In this document: positions 15,539 to 24,993 of the stretch, in pieces
How the letters are laid out: the number at the start of each line of letters is the position of its first letter
How positions within the stretch are numbered: position 1 is the first letter of the stretch
Origin: Trichlorobacter ammonificans
GTDB taxonomy: Bacteria; Desulfobacterota; Desulfuromonadia; Geobacterales; Pseudopelobacteraceae
Assembly (NCBI RefSeq): GCF_933509905.1
Contig: NZ_OW150024.1
Span: 2,840,001-2,904,000, forward strand
Reading direction: 5' to 3'
DNA: 64,000 nt
The notes under the pieces: model-generated
The model's database searches: none
Told to the model about the DNA's origin: nothing
Seen by the model: only the letters and a program-made list of their open reading frames with translations
Translations under genes and position numbers: made by a program

Positions 15539-16753
15539 TGTACAGAGATAGTATTCACCTGACAGTGCCCTTGAATGGGTCGTGATTTACGCTGCCAGTT
15601 TGTAGTCCTCAGTATCTGAATCGTCGTTCTTTGGCAAGCCGTCTATGAAAACCGTGTATGGCGTCCTGCCAAGCATGTTTCTGCCTTGGTGTGGGCGGTC
15701 GTAGTTGTAAGTCTTGAGATAGGTGTCCAGATCGGTCTGCATCTCGTCCAACGACTCGTACCACTTGGTGCGGCCCATTACCCGGAAGTGTTCGTCAAGC
15801 AAGGTTCTGTGCAGCCGTTCGACAAAGCCATTGCTCTGCGGACGTCTGACCTTGGTGGTGCGGTGCTCGATCTCTTCAAGCTGTAGGAACAGCTCGTAGG
15901 GATGATTGTCCGGCCTGCCGCAGAACTCCCTGCCATTATCCGAGAGGATGGTGCTGATCCGGGCGTCATGTTCTTCAAAGAACGGCAGTACGTCTTCATT
16001 AAGCACATGCACGGCAGTGACCGGCAGCTTATTGGTGTAGAGCTTGCCCCAGGCGTAGCGTGAGTAGCAATCAATGACCGATTGCAGGTAGACTTTGCCG
16101 ACGCCTTTCAGAGTGCCGACAAAGAAGGTGTCCACTGCTACGAGATCGCCGGTGTGGCTGGTTTCGATGTGGCGCTCCCTGAACTCCGGGCTGAAACGTT
16201 CCAAGGCCCTGATCTGCTCATCTGACAGTTCGAAGGCTTGTTCCCGGACGCTCTTTTCAAGTCGCAGCATCCGTTCCTGTTTGGTCAGCAGGTTGTGCCT
16301 GCTCCAGACTCCGCGAACGCCTCCTGAGCTAACCTGGGTACCTTTAAGAGCTAACTCGTTGGCAACCCGTAGCGGGCCATGACCGGGATGAGCCAGGCAG
16401 TGTTCAAGAATCGCCTGCTCTACAGATTCATCGACTCGGTTAGGATGCGGGCCTCTGGCTCCGGGCATCCGATCAACCAGACCGGCTGAACCGTAGGTCT
16501 GATAGTTTCGACGGATTTCATAGAACTGCTGCCGCGAATAACCCATGAGCTTGCAGGCTTTGCTGACATTCGAAAGATCGGCGGCCAACTCTAGCAAACT
16601 GAGCTTTCTTCGTGATACTTTCTCGGCGGTGGTCATACTGTTCTCCTTGATGGAAAGATTTAGTCTGAGCAACTTCATCTTTTACCATTCAAGGGCAGTA
16701 TGGCCACCAACTGAAAATGGCCAACTGTCAGGTGAATACCATCACACTACACA
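15539..16753 (-). mobile_element. Complete IS481-like insertion sequence with 5-bp target duplication
   Basis: The 1215-bp element carries one transposase gene. The ends are imperfect inverted repeats beginning TGT: TGTACAGAGATAG at the left and the complement reading TGTGTAGTGTGATG at the right. Both then continue with GTATTCACCTGACAG (15539-15565 and 16725-16753). A direct AAGGG flanks it on both sides (15534-15538 and 16754-16758), the expected target duplication. A TGCCCTTGAATGG motif follows each end, immediately at the left and after about 30 extra bases at the right. It is inserted between a palindromic repeat and the 3' end of a DUF4143 ATPase gene. Confidence 0.9.
15587..16636 (-). 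CDS. IS481-family transposase
   Basis: The 349-residue product has an N-terminal helix-turn-helix region (about residues 8-60, KLSLLELAADLSNVSKAC and MGYSRQQFYEIRRNY) and a C-terminal rve/DDE integrase core. Catalytic acids are visible in AVDTFFVG (D), ILSDNGREF (D) and NGFVERLHRTLLDE (E). The start at 16636 (MTTAEKVS) is supported by AAGGAGA upstream; an upstream in-frame ATG lies inside the element but lacks a site. The frame is full length and uninterrupted, so the element could be active. Confidence 0.93.
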   Translation of the reverse strand: MTTAEKVSRRKLSLLELAADLSNVSKACKLMGYSRQQFYEIRRNYQTYGSAGLVDRMPGARGPHPNRVDESVEQAILEHCLAHPGHGPLRVANELALKGTQVSSGGVRGVWSRHNLLTKQERMLRLEKSVREQAFELSDEQIRALERFSPEFRERHIETSHTGDLVAVDTFFVGTLKGVGKVYLQSVIDCYSRYAWGKLYTNKLPVTAVHVLNEDVLPFFEEHDARISTILSDNGREFCGRPDNHPYELFLQLEEIEHRTTKVRRPQSNGFVERLHRTLLDEHFRVMGRTKWYESLDEMQTDLDTYLKTYNYDRPHQGRNMLGRTPYTVFIDGLPKNDDSDTEDYKLAA

Positions 16754-16763
16754 AAGGGAACAT

Positions 16764-17930
16764 TTATTCCGTGCCAATAGTTCCGGCCTGCCCCCAGGGA
16801 AGTATCCGGGTTGTACCGGAGTCAAATCGCTGATCCCCGCCGTAGATCAGCCATGAGATCTGCTCCGTGTTGCCGGAAAGATGCACCCATTTCCTGAGGT
16901 TGTCCGTAAAATCAGCCGCAACGGTTGTGCCGGATTTGATCTCCACCGGCATCAGGCGCTCCCCCTCTTCCAGGAGCAGGTCAACCTCCAGCCCCCTGCT
17001 GTCGCGCCAGAAATACAGATTGGACGGCCTGCCGTCGTTCCAACGCTGCTTGAGAAACTCCGCTACCATCAAGGTTTCGAACAGATTGCCCCGTTGAGCA
17101 TGAAACGCCATATCCTCCGGCTTGTGTATGCCCAGCAGCCAGGCTGCCAGCCCCGCATCGCAAAAATAGAGTTTGGGCGATTTGACCAGACGCTTGTTGA
17201 AGTTGCGGTGGTGAGGACGCAGCAGATGGATGATGTAGCTGGCCTCCAGCACCGCAATCCAGGCTGCCGCGGTGTTGTGGGTGATGCCGCAATCGGCGGC
17301 CAGTGAGGAGAGGTTCAGTAACTGGCCGGTACGGGCGGCGCACATCCGCAGGAAACGCTGGAAGGTGGAGAGGTCACGCACATTGATCAGTTGCCGCACA
17401 TCACGCTCAACATAGGTGGCGACATACCCGGCAAACCAGTCGCCGGGCAGCAGGTCACGGTCATGCAGGGCCGGATAGCCCCCTGTGAACAGCAGTTCAT
17501 CAAGGGTGGCGGGCAGCAGGGAAGCATCGGCAAGTTCGTTGATACCGAGGGGAAGCAACTGCACCATGCCCACCCGTCCGGCCAGTGACTGGCTGATACC
17601 GGCGAGCAGACCAAACTGCTGTGATCCGGTCAGAACGAACATACCGGGACGCAGATTGGCGTCAACATGGGTTTGCAGGTAGGAAAACAGGTGAGGGGCG
17701 CGCTGCACCTCATCAAGTATGGCGCCATCGGGATATCCGGCAAGCAGCCGACGCGGGTCGGACTCGGCAATGACGCGGACATCCGGGTCTTCCAGTGAGA
17801 GATACGGTTTATCGGGAAAGGTTGCCCTGGCAAGGGTGGTCTTGCCGGACTGCCGCGGGCCGGTTATGGCTATAACCGGAAATCCATGGGCAAGGCGCTG
17901 CACTGTTTGTTCTGATTTTCTCTTTATCAT
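16764..17930 (-). CDS. AAA+ ATPase with DUF4143 domain (copy 3 of 3)
   Basis: The 388-residue P-loop ATPase has Walker A in GPRQSGKTT, Walker B in AILDEVQRAPHLF, sensor-1 in VLTGSQQFGLL, YVERDVRQL before the DUF4143 helices, and a final nuclease-like D...E-x-K block (LEVDLLLEEGERLMPVEIKSG). It is very similar to copy 1 at 5032-6210 throughout. The IS481-like element ends 10 bases beyond its stop codon, so the insertion spared the coding sequence but separated it from the palindrome at 15491-15524. The role of the family is unsettled. Confidence 0.88.
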   Translation of the reverse strand: MIKRKSEQTVQRLAHGFPVIAITGPRQSGKTTLARATFPDKPYLSLEDPDVRVIAESDPRRLLAGYPDGAILDEVQRAPHLFSYLQTHVDANLRPGMFVLTGSQQFGLLAGISQSLAGRVGMVQLLPLGINELADASLLPATLDELLFTGGYPALHDRDLLPGDWFAGYVATYVERDVRQLINVRDLSTFQRFLRMCAARTGQLLNLSSLAADCGITHNTAAAWIAVLEASYIIHLLRPHHRNFNKRLVKSPKLYFCDAGLAAWLLGIHKPEDMAFHAQRGNLFETLMVAEFLKQRWNDGRPSNLYFWRDSRGLEVDLLLEEGERLMPVEIKSGTTVAADFTDNLRKWVHLSGNTEQISWLIYGGDQRFDSGTTRILPWGQAGTIGTE

Positions 17931-17996: not shown

Positions 17997-18404
17997 TCAC
18001 AACGATCCGGTCAACATCAACGAAGCAGTACCATGCACCACCAGCTTGCCGTGCTGATTGGTTACCTCCACCCGTACACTGGCGGTGCGGCGGCCGATAT
18101 GCAGCAGTTCTGAACGGGCGGTAAGACGATCTCCCACGCCGGCTGGGCGGACATAGACAACGTTCAGGCTGGTGGTGGTGCAGGGGGTGGCGGAGGGGAG
18201 CAACGGGCGGGGAAAGAATGCGGCAGTATCCACCAGGGTGGCCAGCAGGCCGCCGTGGGCGCCGCCGAAGTAGTTGCGGTGGCGGTCATCCACCGTCACC
18301 TCCATCACGGCATGGCGGTCGCCGATCTCGACAAGCCTGATCCCCAGGGTCTGCAACAGGGGGATGGCGCTGGCGGTTTCCAGGGTGGCAGGTTCAATGC
18401 TCAT
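17997..18404 (-). CDS. PaaI-type hotdog-fold thioesterase
   Basis: The 135-residue product is a hotdog-fold acyl-CoA thioesterase. The family motif lies in YFGGAHGGLLATLVDTAAF (about residues 45-63), where HGG and the Asp line the active site, and SLNVVYVRPAGVGDRLTA follows. The acyl-CoA substrate cannot be inferred. Its start overlaps the 3' end of the selenoprotein gene by 11 bases, so the two are translationally coupled. Whether the pair is functionally linked beyond co-transcription is unknown. Confidence 0.85.
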   Translation of the reverse strand: MSIEPATLETASAIPLLQTLGIRLVEIGDRHAVMEVTVDDRHRNYFGGAHGGLLATLVDTAAFFPRPLLPSATPCTTTSLNVVYVRPAGVGDRLTARSELLHIGRRTASVRVEVTNQHGKLVVHGTASLMLTGSL

Positions 18405-18939
18405 GGCTGCTCCGTATCATGTGCAGGATGGTCTCCACCGGCGGACGGTCGGCTGGTCCGGTGCCCACATGGTGCAGGCGGACGATGCCCTCCGGGTCGA
18501 TCAGCACATCGCCGCCCCGCTGGTGGATGTCGTTGGTGGGGCGGTGCAGTTTCTGTCCCTTCAGCAGTTCCCTGAAATAGACCCGCCAGTTTTCCGGCCC
18601 CCACAAATCCCAGAACGAGGCATGCAGCATATCGTAGGCATGGTACACTTCCCGGCCTGCATCAATCAGCAACGGCCAGTTGAGGCCGGTCTCCGCAACG
18701 TAGGAACGGGCAAAGAAATCATGCTCAAAGGTGACGATCACCACCTTGACCCTCAGGCTGTCCAGTTCTGATTCATGATCACGCAACTGCGTGATGTGCG
18801 CCCGGCAGGGCAGTCAGCCCAGGTGCCGGTGGAACATCAGCAGCAGCCAGCTTCCCCGGTACTCTTCCAGGCAATGTGCATGCCCCGTCGTGTCGTTCAA
18901 GGAAAAGGGAACGGCCGGCTGTCCGCTCAAATTTTTCAT
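18394..18939 (-). CDS. Peroxiredoxin-like selenoprotein (in-frame UGA as selenocysteine)
   Basis: Read through a TGA at 18814-18816, this frame gives one continuous 181-residue AhpC/TSA-like thioredoxin-fold protein. ATG at 18939 has GGAGGG five bases upstream. The N-terminal part reads GQPAVPFSLNDTTG (residues 6-19), then LEEYRGSWLLLMFHRHLG, then Sec42-Leu-Pro-Cys45, then RAHITQLRDHE; downstream VVIVTFEHDFFARSYV and GGDVLIDPEGIVRLHHVG complete the fold. Homologous sequence on both sides of the stop, and the stop at the catalytic position of the CxxC motif, argue for selenocysteine rather than a nonsense mutation. A hairpin lies 25 bases downstream. It is likely a thiol/selenol peroxidase or reductase. 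A conventional gene caller would start it at a TTG after the UGA and lose the active site. Confidence 0.88.
18778..18795 (-). promoter_or_regulatory. Candidate bacterial SECIS hairpin
   Basis: In the mRNA, perfect 7-base arms AUCACGC and GCGUGAU enclose an AGUU loop. The loop begins 26 nucleotides after the UGA and has G as its second base. That placement and loop agree with the known bacterial SECIS pattern: a short stem-loop just 3' of the UGA, with G in the first loop positions. A smaller GCCC/GGGC hairpin lies closer to the UGA. No energy calculation was possible. Confidence 0.7.
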
Positions 18940-19002
18940 GGCACCCTCCGTGTAATCGCTTCAGCGCCTCGTCCCGTCGGACGCCGCTGGCCGCCACAAC
19001 CG

Positions 19003-19719
19003 TCACGACAGTGGGCTGTGCTCGTCGCAGTAGACGGCAAAGTGCCGTTCGTACTCCCGCAGGGCGGTACGGGCGGCAATGGGCACCCCCTTGGCGAAGC
19101 AGTCCAGGATGACGATGGCATTCACGGCGGCATCCTTGTCGCTGGCCGCGCGCAACCGCTCGGCAAAGCTCTTGTTGACTATCCTGATCCGGTCGTAAAT
19201 CTGTTGCAGCCCTTCCAGGGACCAGTCGGGGGCCTGTCCTTTCCTTGCCCTGAAATACTGGGCCATCAGGTACATGGAGACCGTCCGGAACTCGGTCTCT
19301 TTCATGGAGGCAAAGGGGAGGTGAAAACGGACCATCGGTCTCAACGGGTTCATCACCGGACAGCCGGCACTCACCATGATGATGCCCATCAGCGGCCCCA
19401 GACCGCTTTGCAGCGAGGCATCCTTGAAGTAGCCGCGCTGGCTGTCGCTCACCTCGATCCGGACCTTCTCGGAAGAGAGGCGGTCCTTGAAAAGCTCGAC
19501 GATCCGCGTCAGGTGGACGGCAACGGGACAGTAGGGATGCGTTGCGGGATTCAGGGGACAGACGCGACACTGCCGGAAGCTGATGTCGGTCCAGAAGGGG
19601 GGAGAAACGTCCCCTTCCGGAATCAGGGCCAGGGTATCCCCGTCCAGCCGAAGCAGCACCTCCCGTACCTCACCATTTTCAAAGCGGAAACAATAGGTGA
19701 TTGCAAGCATCGCGGACAT
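19003..19719 (-). CDS. Unassigned protein with a Cys cluster
   Basis: The 238-residue soluble product has a Cys-rich motif C-x2-C-x9-C near residues 51-64 (CRVCPLNPATHPYCP), suggesting a metal or Fe-S site. Later conserved-looking segments are QSGLGPLMGIIMVSAGCPVMNPLRPMVRFHLPF and FRTVSMYLMAQYFRARKG, then a mostly helical C-terminus. It resembles proteins carried by Geobacter-like genomes under a DUF6901-type label, but I am not sure of that name and know no function. Start at 19719 has AAGGAG upstream. It follows putA by 12 bases and precedes the selenoprotein gene by 63, so it probably belongs to the arginine/proline operon. Confidence 0.7.
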   Translation of the reverse strand: MSAMLAITYCFRFENGEVREVLLRLDGDTLALIPEGDVSPPFWTDISFRQCRVCPLNPATHPYCPVAVHLTRIVELFKDRLSSEKVRIEVSDSQRGYFKDASLQSGLGPLMGIIMVSAGCPVMNPLRPMVRFHLPFASMKETEFRTVSMYLMAQYFRARKGQAPDWSLEGLQQIYDRIRIVNKSFAERLRAASDKDAAVNAIVILDCFAKGVPIAARTALREYERHFAVYCDEHSPLS

Positions 19720-19731
19720 GCCGTCTCCTTG

Positions 19732-22674
19732 TTATGAAACCGCCGGGGCAAACCCCCGGCGCATGGTGTTTTCCGTCACCACCCGCTGGTCCATGAAGTG
19801 CGCTAGGTACTCAGGCCCGCCCGCCTTGGTGCCCAGACCGGACAGACCGGCGCCGCCAAAGGGCTGGCGGCCCACCATGGCGCCGGTTATGGCGCGGTTC
19901 AGGTACAGGTTGCCGACCCGGAATTCCCGCCCGGCGCGGGCGATATGCTCCGGGGAGCGGCTGAAAAGTCCGCCGGTGAGGGCAAAGGGAACGGCATTGG
20001 CCCAGGCCAGGGCCTGATCGAAATCCGCCGCCCGCAGCACCGCCAGCACCGGCCCGAAAATCTCCTCCCGGGCCAGCCGGTGTTCCGGCCTGATGCCGCC
20101 GAAAATGGCCAGGGGCACCCAGTACCCTTCCCCCTCCGGGACCGGGCTTTCATAGAGTAGGCGGCCCTCTTCACGGCCAACGGCAAGGTACTCCAGAATC
20201 TTGCGTTGCGCCGCCTCGTCGGCCACCGCCCCCATGGCATGGGCCGGTGATTCCGCCGGACCCAGTCGCCAGGTGCGGGCCGTCTCCACCAGGCGCTCCA
20301 CAAAGCGGTCATGGATGGCCTCCAGAACGATCACCCGGGAACAGGCCGAGCATTTCTGCCCCTGGAAGCCGAAGGCCGAGGCCAGCACCTGCGGCACCGC
20401 TTCGTCCAGGTCGGCGTCATCGTCGATGATGACGGCGTTCTTGCCCCCCAGCTCCGCGATCACCCGCTTGAACTGCCGCTGGCCGGGATGGAGCGGGGCG
20501 GCCCGCCGGACGATGCGCTGCCCCACTTCCAGGGAACCGGTAAAGGCGATCAGGGCCACTGCGGGATGGTCCACCAGCAGGTCGCCGATCTCGCTGCCCC
20601 GCCCCGGCACGAAATTGAGCACGCCGTCGGGAATGCCGGCAGCCGTGAACAGCTCCACCAGCCGCCGCCCGATGACTCCGGTCAGCCCGGAGGGCTTGAA
20701 CAGCACCGTATTGCCGGTGACCAGGGCCGCGGACACCATGCCGCAGGCAATGGCCAGGGGGAAGTTCCAGGGAGCGATCACCACGGCAACGCCGCGCCCC
20801 TCCCGATACAGACGGTTCTCCTCCCCCGGCACGACTCCCACTGCACAGGGCACGGCCAGACGGCACATTTCGGCAGCGTAATACTCCAGAAAGTCGATGG
20901 CCTCGGCCACATCGGCATGGGCCTGGTCCCACTGCTTGCCGATCTCCAGCACCTGCAGGGCCGCCTGCTCATAGATCTGCTCCCGCACCAGCGCGGCCAC
21001 CCGCCGCAGGCAGCCGGCCCGCTCCGCCGCCGGCGCGGCCCGCCAGGCGGGGAAGGCGGCAGCGGCGGCGGCAACGGCCTGTTCAACCTCGGCGCTTCCG
21101 GCCTGGCAGACCTGACCCAGAATCTCCGAGGGACGGTTGGGATTGCGGCTGGCAAGACGGTCCGTTGTCGCCACGTCCCGGCCGTTGATGAAAAGCGGCA
21201 CAATCTGCCCTGAGCGGCTGCGGGCCGTGGCGATGGCCGCGGGAAAGGCCTCCCTCACCTCGCTGCGGGTGAAATCAACGGCCGGTTCGTTGCGAAATTC
21301 CTCGGCAAAGGCCTCCATAACCGACGCCGGCTGCCCCGCATGCTCCGCCGGATCGTGCAGCAGCCGCGCCACGTCTGCCTGATCCTTGAAGGTCAGCCGC
21401 AGGAACGATTCATTGGCCGTGTTCTCCAGCAGGCGCCGCACCAGATAGCCCATCCCCGGCACCAGCTCGCCGTAGGGGCAGTACAGGCGCACCCGCCCGG
21501 CCTCGGCACGGATGCCGCGCCGCACCGGCTCGGCCATGCCGTAGAGCATCTGGAACTCGTAGCGGGATTCCGGCACCCGAAGGCTCCTGGCCGTCTCCAG
21601 CACGGCGGCGATGCTGCGGATGTTGTGGGAAGCGCAGGCCAGGTGACAGATGGGGTGGTGCTTCAGGATGACGGCGGCCATCCGCTCAAAGGCGGCGTCG
21701 CTGTCGGCCTTCACCGTGCGCACCGGCACCGGCCAGCCCAGCTGCTGCGCCCTGACCGTCTCGTAATCCCAGTAGGCCCCCTTGACCAGGCGGACGGCAA
21801 TGGGGGTGCGCTGTTCCTCCGCCCAGGCCAGCAGTCCGGCCAGATCGTCTTCGCTGTCCCGCAGGTAGGCTTGCAGGGCGATGCCGATATGCGGGTAGTC
21901 GCGGAATTCTGCTCTCAGGCGGCGATAGACCTCCAGGGTGATCCCCTTGAAGCGGTGCGACTCCATGTCGATGCAGAGAAAGGCCCCGGCCCGGACGACC
22001 TGCTGCGCCAGGATGCGCAGCGGCGCCAGGATGCCGCTGACCGAGCCCTCGAAATCCATGGGGTTGGCCAGGGGAAAGAAGGCGGTGGGCTTCACCGCCA
22101 GGTGAACCGGCGGCGCCTCTTCCAGGCCGGGCAGCGTTGTCCAGCGGCTTTGTTCAGCGCTCAGCAGCTCCAGCAGTTGCAGATAGGTGGTCAGGTACTG
22201 CTCCGCCTCGGCATGGGAGAGGGTCGCCTCCCCCAGCACGTCCAGGGCAACGGCAAACCCTGCCCGGTTCAGTGCTGCCAGCCGGTCCGACAGCTCGTCC
22301 GGACGTTCGGCCAGGATGAACTGCCGGGCCATCTCGCGGATATTGGCGGAGATGGCCCGGGCCAGCAGCGCTCCCCCCACGGAGCCCAGCATGCCGGCCA
22401 TACGCGCGCCGCGTGCCAGCACCGGCGGCAACTCCTGCCCGTCACCGAAATACTGGCGGATATGGTCCGTAATCTGTGCATGGCTCGTCAGTACCGGAAA
22501 GACATCCACAAAGCGCAGCAGGCTGGTCTTGAAGCCGGTGTTGCCCAGGCACCATTCCATCACCCTGCCGGTCCAGGTGGCGCTGTTGAAGAGCGCCGGT
22601 TTTTCATCGGCAATAGCGGCAAACAGCGCGCTGCCCCGTTCGATGATCCGTCTGTTCAGGTCGTTTTCAGCCAT
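19732..22674 (-). CDS. putA: Bifunctional proline dehydrogenase / glutamate-semialdehyde dehydrogenase
   Basis: This 980-residue enzyme should oxidise proline to pyrroline-5-carboxylate on FAD, then oxidise glutamate semialdehyde to glutamate with NAD+. The N-terminal helical region and proline dehydrogenase barrel span about residues 1-470, with RLVKGAYWDYE, EFQMLYGMAEPVRRG and YCPYGELVPGMGYLVRRLLE. The aldehyde dehydrogenase half spans about 490-980, with the general base Glu741 in AELGGKN and nucleophile Cys775 in GQKCSA. The N-terminal ribbon-helix-helix repressor domain of enterobacterial PutA is absent, so it should not autoregulate. It lies 18 bases after arginase in the same operon. 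Confidence 0.95.
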   Translation of the reverse strand: MAENDLNRRIIERGSALFAAIADEKPALFNSATWTGRVMEWCLGNTGFKTSLLRFVDVFPVLTSHAQITDHIRQYFGDGQELPPVLARGARMAGMLGSVGGALLARAISANIREMARQFILAERPDELSDRLAALNRAGFAVALDVLGEATLSHAEAEQYLTTYLQLLELLSAEQSRWTTLPGLEEAPPVHLAVKPTAFFPLANPMDFEGSVSGILAPLRILAQQVVRAGAFLCIDMESHRFKGITLEVYRRLRAEFRDYPHIGIALQAYLRDSEDDLAGLLAWAEEQRTPIAVRLVKGAYWDYETVRAQQLGWPVPVRTVKADSDAAFERMAAVILKHHPICHLACASHNIRSIAAVLETARSLRVPESRYEFQMLYGMAEPVRRGIRAEAGRVRLYCPYGELVPGMGYLVRRLLENTANESFLRLTFKDQADVARLLHDPAEHAGQPASVMEAFAEEFRNEPAVDFTRSEVREAFPAAIATARSRSGQIVPLFINGRDVATTDRLASRNPNRPSEILGQVCQAGSAEVEQAVAAAAAAFPAWRAAPAAERAGCLRRVAALVREQIYEQAALQVLEIGKQWDQAHADVAEAIDFLEYYAAEMCRLAVPCAVGVVPGEENRLYREGRGVAVVIAPWNFPLAIACGMVSAALVTGNTVLFKPSGLTGVIGRRLVELFTAAGIPDGVLNFVPGRGSEIGDLLVDHPAVALIAFTGSLEVGQRIVRRAAPLHPGQRQFKRVIAELGGKNAVIIDDDADLDEAVPQVLASAFGFQGQKCSACSRVIVLEAIHDRFVERLVETARTWRLGPAESPAHAMGAVADEAAQRKILEYLAVGREEGRLLYESPVPEGEGYWVPLAIFGGIRPEHRLAREEIFGPVLAVLRAADFDQALAWANAVPFALTGGLFSRSPEHIARAGREFRVGNLYLNRAITGAMVGRQPFGGAGLSGLGTKAGGPEYLAHFMDQRVVTENTMRRGFAPAVS

Positions 22675-22692
22675 GGTTTCCTCACCGCGCCG

Positions 22693-23583
22693 TCACAGAA
22701 TCCGCTTGCCGAACAACGAGGCCGCCAGCTCCGCCGCCAGTTGAGCGGTGCGGTTGTGCCGGTCCAGAATCGGGTTGATCTCCACGATATCCATGCTGCG
22801 GCAGCAGCCGCAATCGGCAATGATCTCCATGGCCAGCTGGGCCTCGCGGCAGGTCAGCCCCCCCGGCGACGGGGTGCCGACGCCGGGGCCGTCCTGGGGA
22901 TCGATGCAGTCCATGTCCAGGCTCACATGGAGGCTGTCGTGGTGTTCCAGCCGGTCCAGGGCCTCGCGCAGCACCGCGCCGATCCCCCGTTCGTCGATGT
23001 CGCGCATGGTGTAGATCGTCACGCCGCTGGCACGCAGCCGTTCCCGCTCCCCGGAATCAAGGTCACGGATGCCGATCAGCACCACATCCTCCGGCTTCAG
23101 CAGGGGGCCGGGGCGGCCGATGGCGGTCAGCTCCGGGTAGCCTTCCCCCAGCAGCGCTGCCAGGGCCATGCCGTGGATATTACCGCTCAGGGTAGTTTCC
23201 GGCGTGTTGAAATCGGCATGGGCATCGATCCAGAGCACCCCGCGCGGCGCTTCGTGGGTTACCCCACCGATGGAACCGATGGCCAGGCTGTGATCACCCC
23301 CCAGGAATAGCGGCGTCTCGTTGGCGGCAACCGCCCGTCGGGCCGCCCCGTACGTCAGGCGGCAGGCTTCCGCCACGGAAGGAAGATAGTGTTGCTCCGC
23401 CTCGGCCGCCACGGTTTCCCGCACCGCCACCTCCAGGTTGCCGCTGTCGCAGACCCGGTGTCCCAACCCTTCCAGCTTGGCGGCAAGTCCGGCGTAGCGC
23501 AGGGCCGCCGGACCCATGTCCACTCCCCGCTTGCTCTGCCCCAGGTCCACCGGCATGCCGATGATGCGGATATCCCTGCCCAT
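22693..23583 (-). CDS. rocF: Arginase
   Basis: The 296-residue product hydrolyses L-arginine to L-ornithine and urea at a binuclear Mn2+ site. All signature motifs are present: GGDHSLAIG (about residue 94), DAHADFNTP (about 120-128), and SLDMDCIDPQDGPGVGTPSPGG (about 220-241), supplying the Asp and His metal ligands and substrate-binding residues. Length is typical of the arginase family and longer than agmatinases lacking SGNIHGM, which is present here. It starts 13 bases after the ornithine cyclodeaminase-like gene and precedes putA by 18 bases. Confidence 0.95.
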   Translation of the reverse strand: MGRDIRIIGMPVDLGQSKRGVDMGPAALRYAGLAAKLEGLGHRVCDSGNLEVAVRETVAAEAEQHYLPSVAEACRLTYGAARRAVAANETPLFLGGDHSLAIGSIGGVTHEAPRGVLWIDAHADFNTPETTLSGNIHGMALAALLGEGYPELTAIGRPGPLLKPEDVVLIGIRDLDSGERERLRASGVTIYTMRDIDERGIGAVLREALDRLEHHDSLHVSLDMDCIDPQDGPGVGTPSPGGLTCREAQLAMEIIADCGCCRSMDIVEINPILDRHNRTAQLAAELAASLFGKRIL

Positions 23584-23596
23584 CGCTCCCCCCCGG

Positions 23597-24685
23597 TCAG
23601 CACAGATTATGGCGCAGGTTCACCACGAAATCCTGCACATTGGTCAGAATCGGCGCCGCCTGCAGCGAACCCCGGTTGGCCAGCTTGTCCACGCTGAACT
23701 CGCTCATGTCCACCACGTAAAAAAAGACCGGCCGCACCGTTCCGGCGGCATCAACCTGATACCCCGGCAGCATGTTGCCGAAGGCGATGCTGTGCAGTTG
23801 CGTAGCCAGGGCGACCACGGTGGTGGCCCGTCGGGCATGGACCCGCATGGCGTCCTGAGCCGCGCAGGCATCGGCGATCACGCCGGGCAACGGCCCGTCG
23901 TCGCGGATCGAGCCGGCCAGCACCCAGGGCACCTGCTGCCGCTCGCAGGCAGCCATGATGCCGTCGCTGATTCCCAGCTCCCGGATGGCGACGGCCAGGG
24001 AACCGCAGCGCCGCACCCGGTTGATGGTGTCCAGATGGTTGCAATGCCCCCCCGGCCGCAGCTCCCGCGTATAGATATCCTGACCCAGGCCGGTGCGAAA
24101 AAGGGCCGCCTCCAGATCGTGGGTGGCCAGGGCGTTGCCGGCCAGCAGGGCGTGGCAATAGCCCGCCTCTACCAGCGCCGCCATGGCGTCGCGGCTGTCG
24201 CGGTCAAAGGCCACCGCCGGCCCCAGCACCCAGACGATATGCCCCTGCTGCCGATCATGGCGCAGCAGGTCGTACAGCAGATCATAGGATCGTGAATAGG
24301 GGGTCTCGCGGCTGTTGCGGGTGCGGAAGGCAAACTCGTCGGCAGGAGCGCCGGCCGGCACGGCAAATCCGTCGGCATGGACATACACCCCCTCTTCGCC
24401 GCGGCCGGTCCTGGCAAGCACCACCGGATCGCCCCGCCGCACCGCGCGGGGTTCCACCACCCGCAGCTCATCGCCCCGCAGCAGGTAGACGCCGTCCATG
24501 CGCCCCTCCCTGGCCAGCAGCCAGCGGCCATCCCCCAGGTGCAGATACTCGGGAAGATTTGATGTTGCGTGGAATCGTTCGGGCAGGACACCGTCGGCAG
24601 GGGCCGGCGCGGTTTGCGCCTGCGGGGCATCGGCCAGGGGCGACCGGGTGAAGTCAGGGGGCGTGTAGGGGGGGAACAGCTCCAT
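23597..24685 (-). CDS. Ornithine cyclodeaminase-like protein (TIGR00300/LOR-SDH domain type)
   Basis: The 362-residue product belongs to the LOR/SDH-domain family, not the classic mu-crystallin-like ornithine cyclodeaminases. Archaeal and cyanobacterial relatives of this domain convert ornithine to proline and ammonia with NAD+. A Pro-rich N-terminus is followed by the region LPERFHATSNLPEYLHLGDGRW, a central Rossmann-like part (GHIVWVLGPAVAFDRDSRDAM; AGNALATHDLEAAL), and the conserved CNHLDTINRVRRCGSLAVAIRELGISDGIMAACE. Its position just before arginase and PutA supplies the missing ornithine-to-proline step. ATG 24685 overlaps the upstream TGA by one base. Confidence 0.85.
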   Translation of the reverse strand: MELFPPYTPPDFTRSPLADAPQAQTAPAPADGVLPERFHATSNLPEYLHLGDGRWLLAREGRMDGVYLLRGDELRVVEPRAVRRGDPVVLARTGRGEEGVYVHADGFAVPAGAPADEFAFRTRNSRETPYSRSYDLLYDLLRHDRQQGHIVWVLGPAVAFDRDSRDAMAALVEAGYCHALLAGNALATHDLEAALFRTGLGQDIYTRELRPGGHCNHLDTINRVRRCGSLAVAIRELGISDGIMAACERQQVPWVLAGSIRDDGPLPGVIADACAAQDAMRVHARRATTVVALATQLHSIAFGNMLPGYQVDAAGTVRPVFFYVVDMSEFSVDKLANRGSLQAAPILTNVQDFVVNLRHNLC

Positions 24686-24993
24686 CAGATTTCCTCCGGA
24701 AAGCCGGCATGCATCTGGTGCCGGTCACGGCATTCTTCGGTTCCGTGCTGACGGCATGGCAGCTTGCGGTAGTATAGCCCGCTTTCCCGGCGATGCAACA
24801 GCTCAGCCCGCAGCCGGCGTCCAACAGCCGCCGGACCGGCACGGCGACGGCCATGGCGGCGCGGGTGATCAACTTCACGGCCAGGGAGCGTCCAGCGTGG
24901 CGCGTTGCCCGGCCTCCAGGTTTGAGCACCGCTGCCCATCGGCATCGAACCGTTCTCGATTTCCTCCGCCGTCGATTGCTCCGCGCAGTTCAT
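24685..24993 (-). CDS. Small Cys/His-rich protein coupled to both neighbours
   Basis: This 102-residue frame begins with ATG at 24993, overlapping the methyltransferase stop as ATGA. It ends with TGA at 24685-24687, overlapping the next start as TGATG. This double coupling is the main support for expression. The N-terminus is acidic (MNCAEQSTAEEIENGS), the middle is Arg-rich, and the C-terminus has a metal-site-like C-x2-H-x4-C-x3-H-x2-H (CRQHGTEECRDRHQMH) ending HAGFPEEI. I do not recognise a family. The Arg-rich middle could reflect GC bias, and an overlapping frame is also open, so this needs protein-level confirmation. Confidence 0.55.
   Translation of the reverse strand: MNCAEQSTAEEIENGSMPMGSGAQTWRPGNAPRWTLPGREVDHPRRHGRRRAGPAAVGRRLRAELLHRRESGLYYRKLPCRQHGTEECRDRHQMHAGFPEEI

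What the first reader, a model, noticed from the sequence alone, without database searches (positions are those of the whole stretch)
18394..18939. Peroxiredoxin-like selenoprotein hidden by an in-frame UGA
The reading frame is homologous to an AhpC/TSA-like fold on both sides of TGA 18814-18816. The stop occupies the first residue of the U-x-x-C active site (Sec42-Leu-Pro-Cys45). A good ribosome binding site precedes the upstream ATG, and a 7-bp hairpin with an AGUU loop lies 25 nt 3' of the UGA. Conventional annotation would truncate the protein and drop the catalytic residue. Sec-containing Prx-like families are known in this group of bacteria; this co-transcription with a thioesterase and an arginine operon is, to my knowledge, not described.
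Basis: partly seen in the sequence, partly recalled or inferred. Interest (0 to 1): 0.85.

Follow-up and report, generated by a model that had tools for sequence, protein, structure and literature searches.

The report
Selenoprotein read through a stop codon
A small redox-enzyme gene in a Geobacter-like bacterium almost certainly reads an internal stop codon as the rare amino acid selenocysteine; the prediction is well supported, but it adds a member to an already named protein family rather than something new.

Summary
On the minus strand, 18394-18939 is one 181-codon frame interrupted by TGA at codon 42 (18814-18816), in the motif HLG-U-LPC. The genome (one 3.06 Mb contig) has selA, selB, selD and tRNA-Sec. 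The protein scores 187 bits against NCBIfam "SelL-related redox protein" (cut-off 120). All 15 over-cut-off genomes (own included) among 97 relatives carry one in-frame TGA there. A close acidobacterial homolog has Cys in the same motif, sits inside the Sec clade, lacks the hairpin, and comes from a genome (completeness not told) with no selA match. The hairpin (7 bp, AGUU loop, 25 nt after the UGA) meets the published bacterial SECIS constraints and shows compensatory changes and strong synonymous-site conservation. Proposed function: a Prx-fold UxxC oxidoreductase, substrate unknown; it lacks the PxxxTxxC/U motif of true peroxiredoxins. The upstream arginine/proline genes were found in none of 25 other loci searched (8 with short upstream flanks); the thioesterase neighbour recurs only in the closest relative. 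There is no protein-level evidence. Verdict: real and well supported, a new member of a known kind.

The parts
18394..18939 (-). SelL-related Prx-like selenoprotein gene: 181 codons plus stop TGA 18394-18396, ATG start
   Evidence: NF040769 187.2 bits, cut-off 120
18814..18816 (-). in-frame TGA, codon 42, read as selenocysteine (inferred)
   Evidence: Cys codon at this place in L090/L093
18805..18807 (-). Cys45, presumed resolving residue of U-x-x-C
   Evidence: invariant in A3; Sec in three UxxU relatives
18778..18795 (-). SECIS-like hairpin: 7-bp stem, AGUU loop (18785-18788), 25 nt after the UGA
18944..18949 (-). GGAGGG, Shine-Dalgarno-like, 4 nt before the ATG
   Evidence: read directly
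17997..18404 (-). hotdog thioesterase (TIGR00369) overlapping the selenoprotein gene by 11 nt; translational coupling inferred; also follows the gene in L070
19003..19719 (-). DUF6901 protein, upstream neighbour 63 nt away; not found beside homologs

Best explanation
The gene encodes a thioredoxin/peroxiredoxin-fold selenoprotein of the SelL-related family. SelB, carrying Sec-tRNA(Sec), recognises the AGUU-loop hairpin just downstream of the UGA, and the ribosome inserts selenocysteine at position 42 instead of stopping. Sec42 lies at the start of the first long helix (43-54), with Cys45 one turn on; the selenolate is expected to attack a peroxide or a disulfide, Cys45 to resolve it as a selenenylsulfide, and a cellular reductant (thioredoxin or similar) to recycle it. 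Shown here from sequence: the frame, its conservation, the Cys replacement, the sel machinery, covariation of the hairpin, the predicted fold. Inferred: actual Sec insertion, catalysis, substrate, reductant, cellular location.
For: Machinery: SelA 499 bits, tRNA-Sec 73.4 bits against gathering 47, SelB 368 bits, SelD 348 bits, itself with an in-frame TGA in GUAAK. Family: NF040769 187.2 bits, AhpC-TSA 69 bits. Conservation: TGA in 15 of 15 over-cut-off genomes of 97 relatives and in 8 of 9 over-cut-off genomes of a 395-genome phylum sample, own genome in both; the ninth, L059, has Cys. Cys swap: L090/L093, one locus, has GCLPC, lies in a 100/97-supported group with two Sec forms, and its genome gave no SelA match, while 29 of 31 other Sec-bearing genomes did. 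Hairpin: Leu52 is TTG in 25 of 25 (z 16), Thr50 ACG in 18 of 18 (z 10); 96.0% of 224 cells paired against 79.4% in shuffles, 30 double-change cells against 7.1, covariation 0.439 against 0.135, 0 of 500 shuffles as high on these three. The bSECIS constraints in PMC13188914 (passages) are met: 4-nt loop, G second, 25-nt spacing, -9.0 kcal/mol. Fold: pLDDT 84.2, pTM 0.79; best PDB match Bcp4, 3hjp_A, Z 20.6, rmsd 2.3, 157 aligned.
Against: No protein or selenium evidence. Two of 31 other Sec-bearing genomes gave no SelA match (G024, 88% complete; G045, 96% complete). The outermost hairpin pair is unpaired in 8 of 32 rows; for the number of pairs with double changes 3 of 500 shuffles reach the observed 5; related sequences inflate such tests. 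Minimum-energy folds of L092, L094 and L097 prefer other structures. The 45-nt stretch is not exceptional by energy. No Rfam family matched the window at gathering score. The model is weak around 110-140. Only one close Cys homolog was found, and the completeness of its genome is not told.
Confidence: 0.95

Rival explanations
1. The TGA is a true stop or a recent nonsense mutation or sequencing error; at most a shorter protein starts at the TTG at 18786.
For: By table 11 the only ORF of 60 aa or more in this frame is 130 aa from a TTG.
Against: The TGA stands at the same aligned position in 25 distinct loci; selection on both sides; the residues before the TGA (FHRHLG) are invariant in A3.
Confidence: 0.01
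2. The UGA is read, in part or wholly, as another residue (Trp or Cys) rather than Sec.
For: Not excluded by sequence; misreading under selenium shortage is conceivable (general knowledge, not tested).
Against: Complete Sec machinery; hairpin under selection; the close Cys homolog lacks the hairpin and its genome gave no SelA match.
Confidence: 0.03
3. It is a selenoprotein of this kind whose partner is a FAD-containing disulfide oxidoreductase (NF004991), as part of a repair island with MsrA, MsrB, a VTT-domain membrane protein and ArsS in part of its range.
For: An NF004991-type gene and a VTT gene lie upstream in 5 of 20 named Sec loci, and an NF004991 gene lies directly upstream of the acidobacterial Cys homolog.
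Against: The five loci form one clade (100/97), so there are two independent cases, not six. Of 17 further loci with about 1.5 kb flanks only L093, the same Cys locus, showed it. Phyletic profile: over cut-off in 9 of 15 genomes with the selenoprotein and 48 of 82 without (Fisher p = 1). The window genome has no match at the 1e-150 limit used.
Confidence: 0.2

Closest known systems
NCBIfam NF040769, SelL-related redox protein
   Same: 187.2 bits over residues 8-174, cut-off 120; the acidobacterial UxxU and Cys forms also pass
   Different: Nothing decisive; the window protein is a UxxC form
Selenoprotein L (SelL) of aquatic animals and marine bacteria
   Same: Prx-like selenoprotein (PMC2398784, PMC2397514; passages)
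   Different: SelL has two Sec two residues apart and a diselenide (PMC3316567, PMC2397514; passages); here Sec and Cys. No SelL sequence was compared; UxxU relatives were seen in Acidobacteriota
Prx-like thiol:disulfide oxidoreductase (PF00578, UxxC/UxxU)
   Same: Domain and motif (PMC13188914, PMC9312934; passages); reported in Geobacter species (PMC1794560; passages)
   Different: Whether the reference protein WP_010940744.1 is an ortholog was not tested
Peroxiredoxins of Bcp and AhpE type; ResA
   Same: Fold: Bcp4 Z 20.6; profile search 2ywn 3.9e-9, ResA 4.5e-9
   Different: No PxxxT/SxxC; a UxxC pair, as ResA has two cysteines (C74, C77 in entry titles)
AhpC-TSA_2 proteins (PF13911) and the Sec relatives L060, L061, L063-L065, L067
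   Same: 41.2 bits to PF13911; Sec before a helix, QxGG motif towards the C-terminus
   Different: UxxA in four, UxxS in L061, UxxC in L067; separate clade on long branches

Membership tests
Bacterial selenoprotein | In-frame TGA with conserved coding on both sides | tested here: met
Bacterial selenoprotein | selA, selB, selC, selD in the genome | tested here: met
Bacterial selenoprotein | Homolog with Cys at the Sec position | tested here: met
   L090/L093 GCLPC; distant GCPxC or GCSVC forms in 5 loci
Bacterial selenoprotein | bSECIS hairpin within published constraints | tested here: met
   constraints; values; covariation
Bacterial selenoprotein | Selenium in the protein | not testable with these tools
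   needs 75Se labelling or mass spectrometry
SelL-related redox protein (NF040769) | Score over the curated cut-off of 120 bits | tested here: met
   187.2 bits
SelL proper | Two Sec residues in the redox motif | tested here: not met
   the second residue is Cys45
Peroxiredoxin (strict) | PxxxT/SxxC or U active site | tested here: not met
   His39 at -3, Met35 at -7; PxxxTxxU motif from PMC13188914 passage, the S and C variants recalled
Peroxiredoxin (strict) | Prx fold | tested here: met
   predicted model
Peroxiredoxin (strict) | Peroxidase activity | not testable with these tools
   needs an assay

The most novel reading that the evidence does not exclude
One hairpin type with an invariant GUU in the loop serves the UxxC forms and the bacterial double-Sec (UxxU, SelL-like) forms alike, so that a single SECIS, 25 nt from the first and 16 nt from the second UGA, inserts two selenocysteines in the acidobacterial relatives; and in part of its range the family works with a dedicated FAD disulfide reductase in an oxidative-repair island.
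Probability: 0.2. Interest if true: 0.5.

Novelty: new member of a known kind. Interest (0 to 1): 0.32.

Why it matters
It is a clean case of a catalytic residue hidden from standard gene calling: the listed table-11 ORF in this frame begins after the active site. The forms found here (Sec-Cys, Sec-Sec and Cys versions of one family, the Cys form placed inside the Sec clade in a genome with no SelA match) would let the cost and gain of selenium in one enzyme be tested directly. It does not add a new kind of system.

Tried and rejected
Pseudogene or sequencing error: rejected by conservation. Link to the arginine/proline genes: not found in any of 25 other loci; 17 of them have at least 2.4 kb upstream, L072, L081, L082, L087, L053, L054, L056 and L057 have under 1.5 kb. 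Synteny with L070 stops at window 18966 and resumes at about 24758. FAD reductase as a general partner: no phyletic association. My first neighbourhood list missed the thioesterase in L070 because the ORF picker preferred longer antisense frames; blastn and tblastn corrected it. Its downstream side could not be judged for L076 (170 bases held). Rfam: no match in the window at gathering score. Plasmids: no DNA match; 8 Thermus records at 29-30% protein identity. Papers: the four terms together in 0 papers; 'NF040769' in 0; 'SelL-related' in none of the 5 listed; further searches were read as listings only, apart from the papers named here. The PNAS paper on SelL (PMC1955791) is not held; what is said of SelL rests on passages of other papers and the UxxU spelling of its motif is recalled.

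Rows left out: A4 (32 rows) leaves out L099 and L100 (divergent; their hairpin was not analysed), L060, L061, L063-L065, L067 (other clade), and L022-L036, L052, L055, L058 as second copies of loci already in. SelA was sought in 31 Sec-bearing genomes besides the own one; the genomes behind L076, L084 and the other-clade loci were not given. L037-L051 (below cut-off, some with a TGA) were not examined. The scan used peptide patterns from the motif itself, so its 20 Sec loci are chosen for that protein motif, though not for synonymous codons.

Full report
What is there. The minus strand of the window holds one 181-codon frame from ATG 18939 to the stop TGA 18394-18396, interrupted by TGA at codon 42. 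The translation reads MKNLSGQPAVPFSL...FHRHLG-U-LPCRAHITQLRD. A GGAGGG lies four bases before the ATG. The next gene, a hotdog thioesterase (TIGR00369), starts 11 nt inside the end of this one. Upstream come DUF6901, a PutA-like proline/P5C dehydrogenase, an arginase and an ornithine cyclodeaminase.

The genome can make selenocysteine. The window lies in a genome of one 3,058,983-base contig with SelA (499 bits), tRNA-Sec (73.4 bits, gathering 47), SelB (368 bits, cut-off 242) and SelD (348 bits, cut-off 125). SelD itself carries an in-frame TGA in a GUAAK motif.

The family. The read-through protein matches NCBIfam NF040769 "SelL-related redox protein" with 187.2 bits (cut-off 120) and Pfam AhpC-TSA with 69 bits. 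Among 97 related genomes, own included, 15 have an over-cut-off match and all 15 have exactly one in-frame TGA. In a 395-genome sample of the phylum 9 genomes, own included, are over the cut-off: 8 with a TGA and one (L059) with Cys. A scan of genome contigs with motif-derived patterns gave 21 loci: 20 with TGA at codon 42 and one, L090 (an Acidobacteria MAG), with Cys in the same motif HLGCLPC. In 396 genomes of that phylum 10 had a match at E 1e-30 or better: six with one TGA, three with two TGA in UxxU, and the Cys form. The three UxxU forms also pass NF040769 (183, 154 and 178 bits), as does the Cys form (157 bits).

Sec against Cys. In a maximum-likelihood tree of 46 rows the Cys form L093 (the same locus as L090) lies in a 100/97-supported group with two Sec forms, within the larger Sec group; this points to replacement of Sec by Cys. 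Its genome gave no SelA match, whereas 29 of 31 other Sec-bearing genomes did; the misses were G024 (88% complete) and G045 (96% complete). The completeness of the Cys genome is not told, so absence of selA there is not proven. The five distant Cys homologs and six Sec relatives of another kind form separate clades on long branches, of which the tree program warns; four of the five distant Cys genomes have SelA.

The hairpin. Alignments A2 (25 distinct loci) and A4 (32, with seven acidobacterial ones) run without gaps from the TGA. For the 7-bp stem, A4 gives 96.0% paired cells against 79.4% in shuffles, 30 double-change cells against 7.1 and a covariation score of 0.439 against 0.135, with 0 of 500 shuffles as high; five of seven pairs have a double change, which 3 of 500 shuffles reach; slid structures score at most 0.136. 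A2 alone gives 96.6% against 88.4% and 10 double-change cells against 1.9. Relatedness inflates such shuffles, as the tool warns. Independently, codon 52 is TTG in 25 of 25 loci (z 16), codon 50 ACG in 18 of 18 Thr (z 10) and codon 53 CGT in 20 of 25 (z 10); these are the three strongest synonymous constraints in the gene. Against L070 the codons 47-55 show no change, although dS is 1.01 before and 0.69 after. The loop is AGUU in 31 of 32 rows and GGUU in L057. The element meets the published bSECIS constraints (PMC13188914, passages): 4-nt loop with G second, 7-bp stem, 25-nt spacing, -9.0 kcal/mol. The Cys homolog L090 does not form it. Against: the outer pair is unpaired in 8 of 32, the energy of the 45-nt stretch is unremarkable (z -1.44), and L092, L094 and L097 fold otherwise on their own.

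Structure and chemistry. AlphaFold on A3 gives pLDDT 84.2, pTM 0.79, weak at 110-140. Residue 42 directly precedes helix 43-54. The best PDB matches by VIA-align are peroxiredoxins of Bcp and AhpE type among others (3hjp_A Z 20.6, rmsd 2.3, 157 aligned); Foldseek also ranks ResA-type oxidoreductases high. The strict peroxiredoxin motif is absent: His39 at -3, Met35 at -7. I expect a two-residue (Sec42/Cys45) cycle with a selenenylsulfide intermediate; whether the substrate is a peroxide or a disulfide is open, and signal peptides were not tested. These steps are inference.

Neighbourhood. tblastn of the window's neighbours against 25 other loci (20 named Sec, L090, and four unnamed) found the thioesterase beside the gene only in L070 (89% identity), apart from one remote 25% hit in L076, and DUF6901, PutA, arginase and ornithine cyclodeaminase in none; 8 of the 25 have under 1.5 kb upstream. 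L070 shares DNA with the window up to 18966 and again from about 24758 onwards; between, L070 has the rest of a second methyltransferase and a 4Fe-4S protein, the window the arginine/proline genes and a methyltransferase remnant at 24807-24958. Which state is older was not determined. In five other named loci, one clade, the selenoprotein follows an NF004991-type FAD oxidoreductase and a VTT-domain protein, with MsrA/MsrB upstream in three and ArsS downstream in four (family models were run on L073 and L090 only, the others are tblastn matches to them). The Cys homolog L090 also follows an NF004991 gene. Of 17 further loci with about 1.5 kb flanks or less only L093, the same Cys locus, shows it. 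A phyletic test gave no association: over cut-off in 9 of 15 genomes with and 48 of 82 without the selenoprotein, and no match at the 1e-150 limit in the window genome.

What is known. Reviews list a Sec-containing "Prx-like thiol:disulfide oxidoreductase" (PF00578, UxxC/UxxU) (PMC13188914, PMC9312934; passages), and it is reported for Geobacter species (PMC1794560; passages). SelL is described as a Prx-like, diselenide-bearing protein of fish, invertebrates and marine bacteria (PMC2398784, PMC2397514; passages). NF040769 does not occur in PMC13188914 nor in any held paper. The finding is a new member of a known kind.

Noticed in passing
L096 and L097 (first UGA starts at 1902, minus strand), L098 (1606, plus strand): Acidobacterial relatives with two in-frame TGA in UxxU, a double-Sec motif, followed by one hairpin with GCAGUUGC core (GCAGUUGU in L098); L097 does not fold into it by minimum energy.
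   Followed up: partly
L060, L061, L063, L064, L065: Another Prx-like Sec clade with FLRHFGU motif (UxxA; UxxS in L061) and a QQGG motif; an inverted repeat GCAGC-AGGNN-GCTGC follows the UGA in all five, read by eye.
   Followed up: no
window 18967-24958: Ornithine cyclodeaminase, arginase, PutA-like and DUF6901 genes lie where L070 has a second methyltransferase and a 4Fe-4S protein; a methyltransferase remnant remains at 24807-24958.
   Followed up: partly
L018 (own genome C1 2341869-2342792): selD has an in-frame TGA in the GUAAK motif, so SelD is probably a selenoprotein too.
   Followed up: partly
L073, L078, L080, L083, L088, L090: Recurrent neighbours: MsrA, MsrB, MerA-like FAD oxidoreductase, VTT membrane protein, ArsS radical SAM protein (not all in all loci).
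   Followed up: partly
window 15587-17930: An integrase-core (transposase-like) gene and an AAA_14/DUF4143 ATPase lie just downstream of the thioesterase, suggesting a rearranged region.
   Followed up: partly
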